Positions 4,671 through 23,368 of a DNA stretch of 23,745 nt are shown here, in pieces. Numbering within the stretch: position 1 is the stretch's first letter; the number at the start of each line of letters is the position of its first letter. The stretch covers positions 1 through 23,745 of the IMG/VR virus record IMGVR_UViG_3300028114_000109; one strand, given 5' to 3'. The position numbers and the translations under genes were made by a program. The notes beneath the pieces are model-generated. The model had not been told where the DNA came from. It saw nothing but the letters and a program-made list of their open reading frames with translations, and did no database searches. This DNA is from a virus.

Positions 4671-4699
4671 GTTAATAACAAGGGAAGTCGAATAAAAGT

Positions 4700-5209
4700 T
4701 TATTTCTTACTTGGTCTCCCTTTCTTTTTTGGTGTTGCTATTGGTGTCACATCTTGTTCTGTTTCTTCGATAATGTTTACTGGTTCTACTGTTTCTATTT
4801 CTTCTGGTATGAATGCTTCCATCTTAGTATCAAAGATTACTTTCTTTTCTCCTACTGGTGTTGCGTAGAACTCATCTACTCTTTTTTGCTCTTCTTCACG
4901 TTCAGCTCGTTTCTTTTCTTTCTCTGGTCTTTTTTCGTTTGCTGTTTGTGCTATCTCCATATTCTGTCTTTCTACCTTAGTGACTTCATCGAGGGAGTGG
5001 ATACCTGCTCATTTCTTGAAAGGGAGACCTTTATGTACTCCATCTACATCCCACGGAATACCTGCTGGATGAAGAGTGACATCTGGATCAATAACATCGA
5101 CACATACTATCATGCCTGAGTGTTTACCCATGACACGCCAAAACTCCTTTGTAGGAGTCATTTCGCTGGGGACAATCAGTCAGTTGTTTTCGAGTTTTTT
5201 GTACATCAT
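4700..5209 (-). CDS. Unknown protein with charged C-terminus and AT-hook-like tail
   Basis: 169 residues, start MMYKKLENNGLIVPSEM. The N-terminal 85 residues look globular (EFWRVMGKHSGMIVCVDVID, GIPWDVDGVHKGLPFKK). Residues 95-125 are a very highly charged Lys/Glu helix, and the C-terminus is acidic, ending KKKGRPSKK, which contains a GRP core like an AT-hook. A promoter with TATAAT ends 6 nt before the ATG, so the mRNA may be leaderless. The first of the two adjacent ATGs was chosen because of this spacing. It is the last gene before the packaging genes. A DNA-contacting role is speculative. Confidence 0.75.
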
Positions 5210-5215
5210 AGAGTA

Positions 5216-5242
5216 ATTATACTTATTCCTTTTCTATTACAA
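5216..5242 (-). promoter_or_regulatory. Promoter, TTGTAA-15-TATAAT, 6 nt before ATG
   Basis: -35 at 5237-5242, -10 at 5216-5221, ATG ends 6 nt further on (5209). There is no room for a leader, so the transcript likely starts at or near the A of ATG. Overlaps the end of the upstream gene. Confidence 0.6.
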
Positions 5243-5492
5243 GAGAATTAAAATCTATTTCAGTGCCTACGCTTTTTACTGTGTTTCCTTTTTCGTTAAC
5301 TGTTTCCTTGTAGACTCCTTGTCGTACTCGGACTGTATATCCTACATCGAGCATTGCTTTAGCGAGATTCATTGCTGATTTGTGATAGTTTCCTTTGACT
5401 ATTCATACATCCTTTCAGAAAGTAAAAATACATCCATCAATATCGAGAGCATCATCCTTTTCTGGGCATTTGATTATTCGTATTGTGTGCAT
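5223..5492 (-). CDS. Small unknown protein, possibly leaderless mRNA
   Basis: 89 residues, MHTIRIIKCPEKDDALDIDG to SLVIEKE. It has a compact alpha/beta look: GCIFTFGKDVGIVKGNYHK, then a helix SAMNLAKAMLDVGY and beta strands YTVRVRQGVYKE. Two UGA glycines occur near residues 27-32. The TATAAT box lies 6 nt before the ATG. The promoter of the following gene overlaps the 3' end of this one. No family is recognised. Confidence 0.75.
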
Positions 5493-5498
5493 GGTTTT

Positions 5499-5525
5499 AT
5501 TATACTTTTATCCCTAGAATTACAA
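5499..5525 (-). promoter_or_regulatory. Promoter, TTGTAA-15-TATAAT, 6 nt before ATG
   Basis: -35 at 5520-5525, -10 at 5499-5504, ATG at 5492. Same boxes and spacing as 5216-5242, so the two genes are probably co-regulated and leaderless. It overlaps the mini-gene 5500-5598. Confidence 0.6.
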
Positions 5526-5598
5526 GAGCTTTTTCGTTTTCCTGGCGGATAAACTCATCGTTTTGTTTTTTGAGAAAATCTAGTAGTTCTTGGCTCAT
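5500..5598 (-). CDS. 32-residue mini-protein
   Basis: MSQELLDFLKKQNDEFIRQE followed by NEKALVILGIKV. It is one amphipathic helix with a hydrophobic tail. The start is 2 nt after the stop of the preceding gene and uses the common AACTATG context. The promoter of the next gene lies in its last codons. It is plausible as a real mini-gene because it fills the gap in frame with a genuine UAA. Confidence 0.55.
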   Translation of the reverse strand: MSQELLDFLKKQNDEFIRQENEKALVILGIKV

Positions 5599-6314: not shown

Positions 6315-6614
6315 TTAATTCCAAACATCACTGAGTGTTACCACTTGCTTTGGAATCTGGTATTGTCACTTGTTCTTCCTGTCATGGTGTGGGAGTCCAT
6401 CTACCCATTCCCTTAGCTTTTCGAGAATAGAGGTAGCGACATCAATGTCGGTACCATGTACTGTTTTGCCTTCTAAATCACATTTGTCCGTAGGTTCTTT
6501 ATTCTCTTTTACTTCTTCCAAGTAGCCTAGTGAAATATAGTCCATAATGAAGTTTCAAATATTTCTATATGTCTTTCAGTCAATTTGGTTTAGAGATTTT
6601 TTAGTTTCTGTCAT
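6315..6614 (-). CDS. Small unknown protein
   Basis: 99 residues, MTETKKSLNQIDGKTYRNIG onwards. Helical N-terminus (NFIMDYISLGYLEEVKENKE), then CDLEGKTVHGTDIDVATSIL, EKLREWVDGLPHHDRKNKGQ and a short C-terminal strand. UGA codes Gly at IDGK, NIGN and KGQY. Its start overlaps the end of the preceding gene by 14 nt. The DVATSILEKLREWVDGLP part looks like a small helical interaction module. Family unknown. Confidence 0.7.
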
Positions 6615-6855
6615 ATATAGCTTTCTTTAGATCATCACTTGCTTTATCAATAAGCCTAGATTGTTTGATAAAATCAAACATCTGATATATAGTCATAAAA
6701 TTGCTACCTATATTTTCTAGTGAGTTTACGATTTCTTTCTTTTCTGTTGCATATCCATATTTATCATCGCATGTCGACCATATATTCAATGCTAACTCTT
6801 TCATTTCATTAAATAGTGTATCACTCGGAGCTGTGTAAAAAAGTTGTTCTGTCAT
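6601..6855 (-). CDS. Small helical protein, first gene after a promoter
   Basis: 84 residues, MTEQLFYTAPSDTLFNEMKE onwards. Mainly helical (SLENIGSNFMTIYQMFDFIK, then QSRLIDKASDDLKKAIYDRN). It contains no UGA, unlike most genes here. It is led by a TTGCAA-16-TATACT promoter at 6886-6913, a 30-nt leader and the TTTAC-N9-ATG start signature. The downstream genes to about 4290 may be read from this promoter. Function unknown. Confidence 0.78.
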   Translation of the reverse strand: MTEQLFYTAPSDTLFNEMKELALNIWSTCDDKYGYATEKKEIVNSLENIGSNFMTIYQMFDFIKQSRLIDKASDDLKKAIYDRN

Positions 6856-6885
6856 AAAAGTATTGTAAAGAAGTAATGTGTAGAC

Positions 6886-6913
6886 AGTATATTCATAACT
6901 TATCCAATTGCAA
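6886..6913 (-). promoter_or_regulatory. Promoter, TTGCAA-16-TATACT
   Basis: -35 at 6908-6913, -10 at 6886-6891, in the 66-nt gap before the 84-residue gene. A 30-nt leader follows. Confidence 0.7.
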
Positions 6914-9033: not shown

Positions 9034-9056
9034 AAATAAATTATTTAACAATCTTG
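9034..9056. repeat. AT-rich 23-nt repeat, copy 1
   Basis: AATAAATTATTTAACAATCT and three more bases. An identical copy lies at 9562-9584. Both follow a Cys-repeat gene start region and mark the duplicated block. Confidence 0.65.
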
Positions 9057-9548
9057 TTCTTTTTCTACTCAAGTAATGAATGTGAATCACTCCCAGTTAA
9101 AATGAGGGATATCGAAGTATTCTTGTTTTTCTTTTTGAGTAAGTCTAGCCCACATCTTTTTGAATGCAGTTTGGAATCTTGTTGTATAACTTTCGTTTAC
9201 ATCAAGCTCTAGTTTTTTATTGAGCTTTGATATTTTTTCATACTCCTCCTTTGAAATTTCTACATTGAAAACTCTATATCTTTTTTGTTGAAATGAATTT
9301 TCATCATTATATTTTTCTGACCAACAGAAATAATTATACTCTGTCATTTTCAAATTTTTGCAATATGGGCAAGATAAGCAATCTGAGCAATATGAGCAAT
9401 ATGGGCAAGAGTAGCAATCTGAGCAAGAGTGGCAATCTGAGCAAGAGTGGCAAGATGAGCAATCTGAGCAAGAGTGGCAAGATGAGCAATCTGAGCAAGA
9501 GTGGCAATCTGAGCAATATGGGCAATATGAGCAATCTGTATTTTTCAT
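9045..9548 (-). CDS. Cys-x-x repeat protein A (short paralogue)
   Basis: 167 residues. After MKNTDC come 19 exact three-residue units of form x-x-Cys (mostly S-D-C, H-S-C, S-S-C, P-Y-C), giving a Cys every third residue from about residue 6 to 63. A conserved domain follows: CKNLKMTEYNYFCWSEKY, NSFQQKRYRVFNVEISKEEY, RFQTAFKKMWARLTQKEKQE and HFNWEGFTFITG. The repeats would form a very regular solenoid with a Cys ladder, or a metal/disulfide-rich rod. It is a paralogue of the gene just upstream. Its C-terminus is truncated after EKEQDC compared with that gene. A longer upstream ATG exists, but MKNTDC is shared by both copies and has the TTTAC-N9-ATG signature. Confidence 0.8.
9360..9530. repeat. 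9-nt tandem repeat array, 19 copies
   Basis: Same unit as the longer array, 171 nt, exactly 19 units, with more varied first codons (His, Pro, Leu, Tyr besides Ser). Older or less recently homogenised than the neighbour. Confidence 0.9.
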
Positions 9549-9561
9549 AATAAAAAGGTAA

Positions 9562-9584
9562 AAAAATAAATTATTTAACAATCT
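9562..9584. repeat. AT-rich 23-nt repeat, copy 2
   Basis: Second copy of the sequence at 9034-9056. In this copy the first UAA inside it ends the long paralogue; in the other copy a UAA in a shifted frame ends the short paralogue. Confidence 0.65.
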
Positions 9585-10230
9585 TGATTGTCTTCCCCAG
9601 TGCCTTACATACTTCTTCTAGTGTCATTTCTTCTCCACATTCTTTTTCAATACCTGTAATGTAGGTAAATCACTCCCAATTAAAATGAGGGATATCGAAG
9701 TATTCTTGTTTTTCTTCTTGTGTAAGTGTAACCCACATCTTTTTGAATGCAGTTTGGAATCGTGTATAATAAGATTCTTTTACATCAAGCTCTAGTTTTT
9801 TATAGAGTTTCGGTATTTTTTCATACTCCTCCTTTGAAATTTCTACATTGAAAACTCTATATTTTTTTTGTTGAAATGAATTTTCATCATCATAGTTTTC
9901 TGACCAACAGAAATAATTGAACTCTGTCATTTTTAAATTTTTGCAATATGGGCAAGATAAGCAATCTGAGCAATATGAGCAATATGAGCAAGAGTAGCAA
10001 TCTGAGCAAGATGAGCAATATGAGCAAGATGAGCAATATGAGCAAGATGAGCAATCTGAGCAATCTGAGCAATATGAGCAATATGAGCAAGATGAGCAAT
10101 CTGAGCAATATGAGCAATATGAGCAAGATGAGCAAGATGAGCAAGATGAGCAATCTGAGCAATATGAGCAAGATGAGCAAGATGAGCAAGATGAGCAAGA
10201 TGAGCAAGATGAGCAATCTGTATTTTTCAT
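9571..10230 (-). CDS. Cys-x-x repeat protein B (long paralogue)
   Basis: 219 residues. MKNTDC is followed by 30 three-residue units (S-S-C, S-Y-C, S-D-C mostly), so 31 cysteines recur every third residue through residue 96. The rest matches paralogue A at about 85-90% by eye (KMTEFNYFCWSENY, FQQKKYRVFNVEISKEEYEK, AFKKMW). It then continues past ITGIEKE with CGEEMTLEEVCKALGKTIKI, a C-terminal module seen in phage repeat proteins of this sort. The repeat length differs from A by 11 units, consistent with slippage in the 9-nt DNA array. Function unknown; a solenoid adhesin, metal-binding or redox protein are options. Confidence 0.82.
9943..10212. repeat. 9-nt tandem repeat array, 30 copies
   Basis: On the minus strand the unit is a Ser or other codon pair followed by TGC (mostly TCN NAY/TCT TGC). 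The plus-strand view is a run of GAGCAA with a variable triplet. Unit count was checked against codon arithmetic: 270 nt, exactly 30 units. All minus frames and one plus frame are open through it, which explains the spurious ORFs there. Confidence 0.9.
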
Positions 10231-10258
10231 AATAAAAAGGTAAAAAATAAAAGTGTGA

Positions 10259-11444: not shown

Positions 11445-11533
11445 AAAGGGGTGATAAAAAGATAAAGAGTTGTTAATCAAGGTTGTGAGCTGTCGGCTTT
11501 GCCAGTTGCTCGTAGTTATGATTGAACGTAAAC

Positions 11534-11752: not shown

Positions 11753-11887
11753 TTACAAAGTTTTCGATAAATAGTACAAAGCTCGATATTTACTTTCTTC
11801 TGAGAGAGTGCTATATTTGTGAAAGTGCTTTCTGAGTTCTATCTTTTGTGATTCGGGGAGGTTTTCTATTTCTTTTTGGTAGTCCAT
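11753..11887 (-). CDS. 44-residue helical protein
   Basis: MDYQKEIENLPESQKIELRK then HFHKYSTLSEESKYRALYYL. Helical, no UGA. The start overlaps the preceding stop as TAATG. Function unknown. Confidence 0.62.
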   Translation of the reverse strand: MDYQKEIENLPESQKIELRKHFHKYSTLSEESKYRALYYLSKTL

Positions 11888-15571: not shown

Positions 15572-15781
15572 TTAGGAATAAAAGATTGTCATTCATACCA
15601 CCAGTTTATTCATTAAGGACACTTTTAGCCACATCTTTGATATATCAATATACTTCACAGCTTCTATGTACATTGATCCTATTCAATCTCAGTGCTGAAA
15701 TGCCATACCAATAAAGTAAAGATGAGATATTAGACATGCTAGTATAAAAAAGAAAAAACACATTTGAGTAATTCTAGACAT
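15572..15781 (-). CDS. 69-residue single-pass membrane protein
   Basis: MSRITQMCFFFFILACLISH then LYFIGMAFQHGDGIGSMYIE. Residues 7-26 form one membrane segment. The rest (AVKYIDISKMWLKVSLMNKL) is amphipathic. Three of the glycines after the membrane segment are UGA. The start is chosen because it follows the preceding stop by 1 nt, as elsewhere here; a longer reading from 15937 is open but conflicts with the promoter (see rejected items). Function unknown. Confidence 0.6.
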
Positions 15782-15782
15782 A

Positions 15783-15896
15783 TTATTTTGATAAAAGAGC
15801 TTGAGAGAGAAGTAATATACTACGAATAGAACCACCATATATACGAGTTTTGTGTTGTATGACATTCTTAGAGAAGAGGTGATTGTAGTGAGACAT
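15783..15896 (-). CDS. 37-residue mini-protein, first gene of a transcript
   Basis: MSHYNHLFSKNVIQHKTRIY then GGSIRSILLLSQALLSK. Its ATG is placed exactly like that of the 6855 gene: TATACT, 30-nt leader, TTTAC-N9-ATG. That placement, not the protein itself, is the evidence. The peptide is basic with a hydrophobic C-terminal helix. The overlapping frame of the membrane ORF is an alternative for this stretch. Confidence 0.5.
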   Translation of the reverse strand: MSHYNHLFSKNVIQHKTRIYGGSIRSILLLSQALLSK

Positions 15897-15926
15897 AAAA
15901 AGAAAGTAAAGAAATAAGATAAGAGA

Positions 15927-15954
15927 AGTATATTCATATATTCTATTCTGTCAA
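15927..15954 (-). promoter_or_regulatory. Promoter, TTGACA-16-TATACT
   Basis: -35 at 15949-15954, -10 at 15927-15932, then exactly 30 nt to the ATG at 15896. Leader sequence resembles that of the 6855 gene. Confidence 0.7.
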
Positions 15955-16637: not shown

Positions 16638-17322
16638 ATTGTGATTGGTTAGAAGTAAATTGTTTTGTATTCATTAGCCATGTAGTAAGTCTCCGTTTCA
16701 CTTCAAATGTTTTTTCAGTTTGCCAGCGTACCTTTTTTCAGTCTGGGGTCTTCTCACACCAATAGTTATAAAACTTGAAAAGCTCGGCACGCAAAACTTC
16801 TCTGTGTTCTGGGTCTGAGTTGATAGAAATGATTACCTCTTCTATATTATTTTCCAGAGATTCAAAAAACTCCCTTGTCTCATCTCTTGGAGAGGTTTCG
16901 ATAGAAACACCTATCTCTGTATCAGATTCTTTACTTCTTTCCTTATTCCCTTTTCCTCCTGTGGCGATTGGTTGGCGATTGGTTGGCGATTGGTTGGGTA
17001 CTTTGTTGGCGATTTGGTCTTGGTACTTATCCCAGTTATTGAGTAATACAACGCTAAAACTCTTGGTTGTTTTGATGGCGATTTCGTTGGTGGACACTAA
17101 CTTCTCTAGAGATGTCCTTATCTGGCTTTCGGTCAATCAAAGCTCCTCAGATAGCTTTTTCCTACCTGTTATGAGACTTCATTTTTGTACTGGTGTTCAC
17201 CTCCAATTTCAATCCTTTATATTTGCCTTGAGTAGCAAATGAATAAATAGGGATTTTGTAGGCGTGTCAGTATACCACTCCCAGTCGAGCAGTTGCCTGT
17301 ATATTTTTATGTATCACTCCAT
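16609..17322 (-). CDS. Replication initiator / replisome organiser
   Basis: 237 residues. MEGYIKIYRQLLDWEWYTDT, KSLFIHLLLKANIKDGNWRG, GSLITGRKKLSEELGLTESQ and IRTSLEKLVSTNEIAIKTTK form the winged-helix N-terminus of the phage replication-protein group that begins GYIK(L/I)YR with W-E-W-Y. A linker follows with NQSPTNRQPIATGGKGNK, then a C-terminal region (TREFFESLENNIEEVIISIN, ELFKFYNYWCEKTPDGKKVR, WQTEKTFEVKRRLTTWL) like the end domain of such initiators. UGA occurs at several family glycines (GYIK, DGNW, LGLT). The linker DNA contains 11-bp tandem repeats that may be the origin. It has its own promoter and a structured leader of about 100 nt. Confidence 0.85.
16963..17018. repeat. Iteron-like repeats inside the initiator gene
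   Basis: Unit GGCGATTGGTT occurs three times head to tail at 16963-16995, and a variant copy (GGCGATTTGGT) is at 17008-17018. Spacing of 11 bp places copies on the same helical face. Located in the linker coding region, as in lambda O, where the origin lies in the initiator gene. Confidence 0.55.
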
Positions 17323-19195: not shown

Positions 19196-19339
19196 TTAAA
19201 TTCTCTCATTTAAGGCAGAGATCCAGTCATCGTCTACCAAAATGTTTTCGTACCCATCGTCAGATAGGTGTGGGGTTATCACTGAGGGTAGGTGTTCTCA
19301 TTGGTGTGTCTTTCGGGACACTTCGTATATTATCAACAT
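19196..19339 (-). CDS. 47-residue unknown protein (frame uncertain)
   Basis: MLIIYEVSRKTHQGEHLPSV, ITPHLSDDGYENILVDDDWI, SALNERI. The acidic C-terminus looks like genuine protein. A second open frame, 19182-19343 (MYVDNIRSVPKDTPMRTPTL and on), overlaps almost completely and has the favoured AACTATG start context and a stop 1 nt before the next gene. Only one is likely to be used; I prefer the first on amino-acid composition. Confidence 0.5.
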
Positions 19340-19548: not shown

Positions 19549-19715
19549 TATTTAGAGAGTTTAAAACATAAAGTCTCTGTCTTTACCTTTCAAGAGGTAG
19601 GGACGAATATATCTACTGCACACTTATGAGTACGAGTAACGTATGTATATGAGTACATCACATCTGCGAACGTAGAGAGTGACATCAGTGACAATAAGAG
19701 GATAACTTTTTTCAT
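19548..19715 (-). CDS. Small secreted protein with signal peptide
   Basis: 55 residues. MKKVILLLSLMSLSTFA is a textbook signal peptide (two Lys, a hydrophobic core, a small-residue cleavage site S-T-F-A before DVMYSY). The mature part is about 38 residues with two cysteines (HKCAVDIFVP and ETLCFKLSK) that can form one disulfide. Glycine of TSGK is UGA. It would be exported to the host surface or medium. It follows a promoter at 19890-19918 and a leader of about 165 nt, which is unusually long here. Role unknown: superinfection exclusion, inhibitor or toxin-like effector are options. Confidence 0.72.
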
Positions 19716-19760
19716 AAAGGGGAGAAAAGAAATAAGAGTACAGAGATTCTGATGTAACTC

Positions 19761-20684: not shown

Positions 20685-20713
20685 ATAATAGAGTTAAATA
20701 ATAGAACTCAATT

Positions 20714-23345: not shown

Positions 23346-23368
23346 AAAAGAATGGTAAAGAAATAAAA

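What the first reader, a model, noticed from the sequence alone, without database searches (positions are those of the whole stretch)
6853..6869. TTTAC exactly 9 nt before ATG in five genes: a possible alternative to Shine-Dalgarno
TTTAC-N9-ATG precedes the starts at 6855, 9548, 10230, 15896 and 23345 (two are paralogues). The wider context is also alike, roughly TTATTTCTTTAC. The starts at 19715, 11444 and 20684 have looser versions. A random 5-mer at a fixed distance would be expected about 0.06 times among 57 starts. Some of these genes are internal in transcripts, so the motif is more likely a translation-initiation or leader signal than a promoter part.
Basis: seen in the sequence. Interest (0 to 1): 0.7.

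Follow-up and report, generated by a model that had tools for sequence, protein, structure and literature searches.

The report
UUUA ribosome-entry signal in code-25 phage
The repeated TTTAC in this phage is the tail of a "UUUA" leader signal about 20 bases before start codons that its UGA=glycine bacterial relatives also use genome-wide, apparently in place of the Shine-Dalgarno sequence they have largely lost.

Summary
The five TTTAC-N9-ATG matches exist, but two are paralogues and one (15896) is a 37-aa ORF out of frame inside a 121-aa ORF. The exact 5-mer and distance are weak after allowing for choice of k-mer, and are not conserved in relatives. The underlying signal is real and wider. 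TTTAC is the 3' half of TTTATTTYTTTAC, whose first TTTA lies at -22/-21. In window genes TTTA at -25..-13 precedes 18/45 starts versus 42/531 control ATGs (p=4e-8). In 16 code-25 (UGA=Gly) bacterial genomes TTTA starts at -24..-20 before 48% of genes versus 3% of internal ATGs. A second set of ten genomes gave 65% versus 7%, and distant code-25 phages 56% versus 6%. The fraction is similar for overlapping, closely spaced and divergent genes and near background at tRNAs, so it is not a promoter. Canonical SD is not used, 16S tails are degenerate in 7 of the 8 code-25 genomes read, bS21 is absent, and a four-domain bS1 is present; four of five rpsA genes inspected carry the tandem element. Best reading: a UUUA leader element that positions the 30S subunit, probably through bS1 (inferred). 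Translation role ~0.85; bS1 as reader ~0.45. I found no earlier report in the library searched.

The parts
6865..6877 (-). ATTACTTCTTTAC leader element of gene 6855..6601 (TTTAC at 6865-6869)
   Evidence: lies downstream of a promoter-like TTGCAA-N16-TATACT (6913..6886), i.e. in the predicted leader RNA
9558..9570 (-). TTTATTTTTTTAC tandem UUUA element of gene 9548; fills the 22-nt intergenic gap
10240..10251 (-). TTTATTTTTTAC tandem UUUA element of gene 10230 (28-nt gap)
11454..11466 (-).
23355..23367 (-). TTTATTTCTTTAC tandem UUUA element of gene 23345 (metallophosphoesterase-domain protein); fills the 23-nt gap after the upstream stop
15906..15918 (-). CTTATTTCTTTAC, same sequence but inside ORF 15937..15572 and before a 37-aa out-of-frame ORF: doubtful as a functional site
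19724..19736 (-). CTTATTTCTTTTC leader of gene 19715, degenerate version
20694..20698 (-). TTTAA at -14..-10 of gene 20684 (Rha-domain protein), single UUUA
16656..16659 (-). TTTA at -22 of gene 16637
19197..19200 (-). TTTA-N5-TWA at -20 of gene 19180
11768..11771 (-). TTTA at -21 of gene 11750, inside the upstream coding sequence (2-nt gap)
4693..4697 (-). TTTTA (TTTA at -26) before gene 4670; TTTTATTCGACTTCCCTT block retained in relative L018

Best explanation
A U-rich leader element in the mRNA, core UUUA beginning about 20-24 nt before the start codon and often followed by a second UUUA or UWA 7-9 nt further on, marks start codons in bacteria that read UGA as glycine and in their phages, in place of Shine-Dalgarno. 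TTTAC-N9-ATG in the window is the second UUUA of this tandem element. Most likely mechanism: the element is bound, single-stranded, by the platform side of the 30S subunit, best candidate the tandem OB-fold domains of bS1, which places the AUG near the P site without rRNA-mRNA pairing. Shown here: position, specificity, distribution, independence from operon position, near-background level at tRNAs, SD below background, degenerate 16S tails in most code-25 genomes read, bS1 present and bS21 not detected.
For: Hosts: TTTA starting at -24..-20 before 380/797 genes versus 158/5201 internal in-frame ATGs. Ab initio EM on 498 leaders from 12 genomes finds T.91 T.97 T.99 A.93 in 57% of genes with starts at -24..-20 and a weaker T-W-A 9 nt on. 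Second set of ten genomes: 224/346 versus 134/1954, p=4e-124. Distant code-25 phages: 48/86 versus 30/471, p=2e-25; L013 21/24, L012 8/8. Window: 18/45 versus 42/531, p=4e-8. Not a promoter: TTTTA in 25/66 coupled, 48/116 close, 96/232 distant and 82/210 divergent genes but upstream of only 2/35 tRNAs; overlapping genes 19/39 and 6/15; second set 1/17 tRNAs; window gap<10 9/22 versus gap>=10 10/22. Same-strand gaps in code-25 genomes show a second mode at 20-29 nt, where 62/75 genes carry it. SD: 0-10% of starts, at or below internal ATGs in most code-25 genomes. 16S tails CUAUCUCC, CCACCACCC, AUCACCUUU, CCAUCUCUC. bS1 with tandem S1 domains; bS21 not found. rpsA leaders carry TTTATTTCTTTA (G057), TTTATTTTTTTA (G001, G029) and TTTATTTTTTA (G008); G047 has only a looser form. 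At 6855 the element lies downstream of a promoter-like sequence.
Against: No expression, TSS or ribosome data exist here; gene starts are longest-ATG ORFs. Several window genes lack the element (26 of 45 in the -26..-13 count). The host of this phage was not identified; only its glycine-codon usage resembles the G047/G057/G164 clade. The close relative L018 shows no TTTA at -25..-13 in 8 short genes. The 7-nt spacing peak of tandem UUUA is strong in clade B and weak in clade A and in the second set. G074, a code-25 genome with a degenerate anti-SD, has little of it (14/87). TGA=stop sisters also show some TTTA excess (18% versus 6%) without the -20..-24 peak. Nothing computed ties bS1 directly to UUUA.
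Confidence: 0.82

Rival explanations
1. Promoter reading: TTTAC-N9 is TANNNT-N6-ATG, a -10 box placed for leaderless transcripts.
For: TACAAT, TACCAT, TACTTT and TACCTT fit TANNNT at -12..-7. Two other window genes (5209, 5492) really have CTCTTGTAAT...TATAAT-N6-ATG, and L018 keeps TATAAT-N6-ATG, so leaderless starts may exist in this phage.
Against: In hosts the element is equally common before overlapping, close, distant and divergent genes and near background at tRNAs. TATAAT has no peak at -12 in host leaders. 6855 has a separate promoter-like TTGCAA-N16-TATACT upstream of its element. Gaps of 22-28 nt hold little but the element.
Confidence: 0.07
2. Base pairing: UUUA-N-UUUA pairs with a UAAA-N-UAAA stretch of 16S rRNA, a rewired Shine-Dalgarno.
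For: G047 has CCCUAAACUAUAAAA just after its 16S 3' region, which would pair with UUUUAUAGUUUA.
Against: Of six code-25 16S genes scanned none of the other five has such a stretch near the 3' end (one lies about 1541 nt from it), yet they carry the same element; the G047 stretch may be trailer outside the mature rRNA.
Confidence: 0.07
3. No specific reader: leaders are simply unstructured and AU-rich, and UUUA is what such leaders look like.
For: These genomes are AT-rich, SD-less initiation in Bacteroidetes depends on weak structure and A-rich context (PMC6847099), and ATTT, TTTT and TTAT also rise in the same zone.
Against: TTTA is the top 4-mer there (380/797; AAAT and TAAA not raised), sharply placed at -24..-20, with a near-invariant A and G-depleted flanks, also inside upstream coding sequences.
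Confidence: 0.15
4. mRNA processing site: UUUA is cut by an endonuclease to leave short leaders.
For: Endonucleases preferring AU-rich single-stranded RNA are common (general knowledge).
Against: Does not explain the fixed distance at divergent operon-first genes or the loss of SD; untested here.
Confidence: 0.03

Closest known systems
U-rich / AU-rich ribosomal protein S1 target sites (Boni et al. 1991, Komarova et al. 2005, as cited in PMC5397173)
   Same: U-rich single-stranded leader stretch upstream of the SD position, proposed to bind bS1 and raise initiation; a candidate substitute for SD
   Different: Those are diffuse enhancers accompanying SD in E. coli; here a defined UUUA core sits at a preferred distance in about half or more of genes and SD pairing is absent
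Bacteroidetes SD-less initiation (PMC6847099)
   Same: Whole lineage without SD, leaders low in structure
   Different: Bacteroidetes retain the anti-SD and use A at -3 and A-rich context near the AUG; here a U-rich element lies at about -20, 16S tails are degenerate in most code-25 genomes read and bS21 was not found
'SD-scarce organisms lacking CCUCC', including candidate division SR1 (PMC10783764)
   Same: SR1/Absconditabacteria already listed with 2-7% SD genes and no CCUCC
   Different: That paper lists them; the section read gives no replacement element
Leaderless mRNA with TANNNT box
   Same: Motif a short fixed distance from ATG; SD-free
   Different: Element also precedes overlapping and operon-internal genes and is near background at tRNAs
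T7 gene 10 epsilon enhancer UUAACUUUA (from memory, a lead only)
   Same: Short U/A-rich leader enhancer with UUUA
   Different: Single phage leader next to a strong SD

Membership tests
Shine-Dalgarno ribosome-binding site | Purine-rich GGAGG-like sequence 5-10 nt before the start | tested here: not met
   SD-like 4-mers at 0-10% of starts in code-25 hosts, at or below internal ATGs in nearly all
Shine-Dalgarno ribosome-binding site | CCUCC at the 16S 3' end | tested here: not met
   Absent in 7 of 8 code-25 genomes with a readable 16S (G047, G057, G065, G049, G029, G008, G074); retained in G027
sigma-70 -10 box / leaderless promoter | Present at operon-first genes and stable RNA promoters, absent inside operons | tested here: not met
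   Equal in all gap classes; 2/35 and 1/17 tRNAs
bS1-type U-rich leader enhancer | U-rich stretch upstream of the SD position | tested here: met
   T peak and TTTA at -24..-17
bS1-type U-rich leader enhancer | bS1 with several S1 domains encoded by the host | tested here: met
   363-436 aa proteins with tandem S1 domains, best NCBIfam models all 30S ribosomal protein S1 but below curated cut-offs
bS1-type U-rich leader enhancer | Direct binding of the element by bS1 with an effect on initiation | not testable with these tools
   needs biochemistry
rRNA-mRNA pairing at another 16S site | Conserved complementary UAAA-N3/4-UAAA in 16S | tested here: not met
   Near the 3' end in only one of six code-25 16S genes

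The most novel reading that the evidence does not exclude
A bacterial lineage with a changed genetic code has replaced Shine-Dalgarno by a sequence-specific protein-read initiation code, UUUA (often in tandem) about 20 nt before the AUG, shared by hosts and their phages, and visible also at the rpsA gene of the presumed reader.
Probability: 0.35. Interest if true: 0.8.

Novelty: new variant of a known kind. Interest (0 to 1): 0.62.

Why it matters
How bacteria without Shine-Dalgarno pick start codons is an open question. Here is a lineage (UGA=Gly Gracilibacteria/Absconditabacteria and phages) in which the 16S tail has mostly decayed, bS21 is not detected, and a clear, sharply placed mRNA element is left, so the replacement can be read from sequence and tested. 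It also gives gene finders a start-site model for code-25 genomes and phages, a host-matching signal for phage contigs, and a natural case for asking whether bS1 can act as the main mRNA reader.

Tried and rejected
Leaderless -10 promoter (my first hypothesis, TANNNT-N6-ATG): rejected for the class by gap-class and tRNA tests, though it remains likely for 5209 and 5492. Pairing with the 16S tail: only G047 fits. Whole-genome counts of TTTAC-N9-ATG or TTATTTCTTTAC-N9-ATG in hosts: no excess over the reversed pattern or chance; the signal appears only at gene starts. Whole-genome tandem pattern TTTATTTYTTTA-N6..16-ATG: only a modest excess over the reversed control in many AT-rich genomes. Prophage search with the 591-aa protein to find the host: no close relative in 353 genomes. 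blastn of a late-gene stretch against phage records: no match. Near-identical contigs L009-L011 are the same virus and give no conservation evidence. Literature searches on Gracilibacteria, Absconditabacteria, SR1, CPR with Shine-Dalgarno or translation initiation: no report of the element (texts checked; PMC9297842 not held).

Full report
WHAT THE WINDOW IS. The window is a 23,745-base virus contig with most genes on the minus strand, open only when TGA is read as a residue (NCBI table 25). L009, L010 and L011 are the same virus at 98-100% DNA identity. L012-L017 and L019 are distant relatives, 34-40% identical in a 591-aa protein; L018 is closer at 73%. Glycine codon use (TGA 36%, GGA 24%, GGT 25%) resembles the host clade containing G047, G057, G065 and G164, not the other code-25 hosts with 70-82% TGA, though G029 and G074 of that second clade are also low. 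The host itself is not identified.

CHECK OF THE OBSERVATION. All five TTTAC-N9-ATG sites exist. 9548 and 10230 are paralogues; 15896 opens a 37-aa frame inside a 121-aa ORF in another frame. Three independent credible sites remain. Random sets of 45 non-start ATGs from the same strand give some 5-mer at some fixed distance at least 3 times in 71%, at least 4 times in 5% and at least 5 times in 0.2% of draws, so the stated expectation of 0.06 is too small. The wider alignment is stronger: TTTATTTCTTTAC (23345), TTTATTTTTTTAC (9548), TTTATTTTTTAC (10230), TTTATCTTTTTAT (11444), with degenerate forms at 6855, 15896 and 19715. Each of the first four has one TTTA at -22 or -21 and a second at -14.

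THE SIGNAL IN HOST BACTERIA. A pattern for the GHVDHGKT motif with TGA as glycine found eight genomes, mostly labelled Gracilibacteria, which opened their class (353 genomes). About 20-220 kb was read from each of several dozen genomes. In code-25 genomes the leaders have a T-rich, G-poor zone at -22..-18. The unbiased EM motif is TTTA (T.91 T.97 T.99 A.93), in 57% of 498 genes, starting at -24..-20, followed 9 nt later by T-W-A. Counting directly, TTTA starts at -24..-20 before 380/797 genes, versus 158/5201 internal in-frame ATGs and 59/567 leaders at -45..-41. TTTA pairs are most often 7 nt apart (85 pairs, against 19 at 6 and 41 at 8); this is clear in one clade and weaker in the other. 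Ten further genomes gave 224/346 versus 134/1954. Those ten were picked because the tandem pattern occurred in them, a mild bias; the statistic was taken over whole 20-kb stretches. TGA=stop sisters of the class show 18% versus 6% and no peak at -20..-24.

TRANSCRIPTION OR TRANSLATION. TTTTA at -26..-10 precedes 38% of genes with gap under 10 nt, 41% at 10-40 nt, 41% of more distant same-strand genes and 39% of divergent genes, but 2 of 35 tRNAs. Even overlapping genes, whose leader lies in coding sequence, have TTTA at -25..-13 in 19/39 and 6/15 cases. Same-strand gaps in code-25 genomes have a second mode at 20-29 nt, and 62/75 such genes carry the element, as if the gap exists to hold it. 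Some host tRNA promoters show an ordinary TTGNAA...TATAAT arrangement (by eye). In the window, 6855 has TTGCAA-N16-TATACT upstream (6913..6886), so its element falls in the predicted leader RNA; 9548, 10230 and 23345 have gaps of 22, 28 and 23 nt that hold little besides the element. The window gives the same independence of gap (9/22 versus 10/22).

WHY SHINE-DALGARNO IS NOT AVAILABLE. SD-like 4-mers are rarer at starts than at internal ATGs in most code-25 genomes (for example G047 2% versus 10%). Code-25 16S tails read CUAUCUCC (G008, G029, G049), CUAUCUCU (G074), CCACCACCC (G047), AUCACCUUU (G057) and CCAUCUCUC (G065), while most sisters keep CCUCC. SD is not clearly enriched in the sisters either, so its decline may be older than the element. 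PMC10783764 had already listed SR1/Absconditabacteria as SD-scarce and lacking CCUCC. bS21 was not found in the code-25 genomes searched. A protein with tandem S1 domains whose best models are 30S ribosomal protein S1 is present. Its gene carries the element in four of five cases inspected, in G057 as TTTATTTCTTTA, the same string as in the phage; G047 has a looser form.

PHAGES. Distant code-25 relatives have TTTA at -25..-13 before 48/86 genes versus 30/471 controls. In L013 it is 21/24, with the favoured position at -18. Phages therefore follow the rule with their own spacing; TTTAC-N9 is the local form in this phage.

MECHANISM. Best reading: the UUUA element is a single-stranded ribosome-entry site bound on the platform side of the 30S subunit, where leader at about -25..-10 would lie; repeated UUUA units suit tandem OB-fold domains, making bS1 the prime candidate. 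The same string in the rpsA leader would allow autogenous control, also untested.

LIMITS. Gene starts are longest ATG ORFs; genomes are mostly MAGs; clade names are inferred; other Patescibacteria classes were not tested at start level; no RNA or ribosome data were available. Novelty is judged only against the open-access library searched.

Noticed in passing
window 5245..5209 and 5528..5492 (minus): Two genes are preceded by near-identical CTCTTGTAAT...AAGTATAAT-N6-ATG, promoters placed for leaderless mRNAs; TATAAT-N6-ATG is kept in relative L018.
   Followed up: partly
window 6913..6886 (minus): TTGCAA-N16-TATACT promoter-like pair upstream of gene 6855, placing its TTTAC element inside the leader RNA.
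   Followed up: partly
window 9571..10230 and 9045..9548 (minus): Paralogous proteins with long Cys-rich (SC/DC/YC) N-terminal dipeptide repeats; the region of the duplicate is the most divergent between near-identical contigs (98% in L011).
   Followed up: no
window 15937..15572 (minus): 121-aa membrane-like ORF contains the TTTAC site called at 15896; a small frame difference between the two ATGs was not resolved.
   Followed up: partly
window 890, 6100, 15704, 20631 (minus); 86, 22477 (plus): Six further TTTAC-N9-ATG matches that are not gene starts, itself more than the 1.2 expected for the whole window.
   Followed up: no
G027 (L038, L145): Genome using TGA mostly as glycine (302 TGA versus 75 GGN codons) whose 16S groups with TGA=stop sisters and keeps CCUCC: second origin of the code or a mixed bin.
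   Followed up: partly
G074 (L047, L081, L121-L124): Code-25 genome basal in its clade with a degenerate anti-SD (CUAUCUCU) but only 14/87 genes with the UUUA element: how it initiates is unclear.
   Followed up: partly
L057 (G047 16S 3' region): UAAACUAUAAAA just downstream of the 16S end is complementary to the tandem UUUA element; not seen near the 16S end in five other code-25 genomes.
   Followed up: partly
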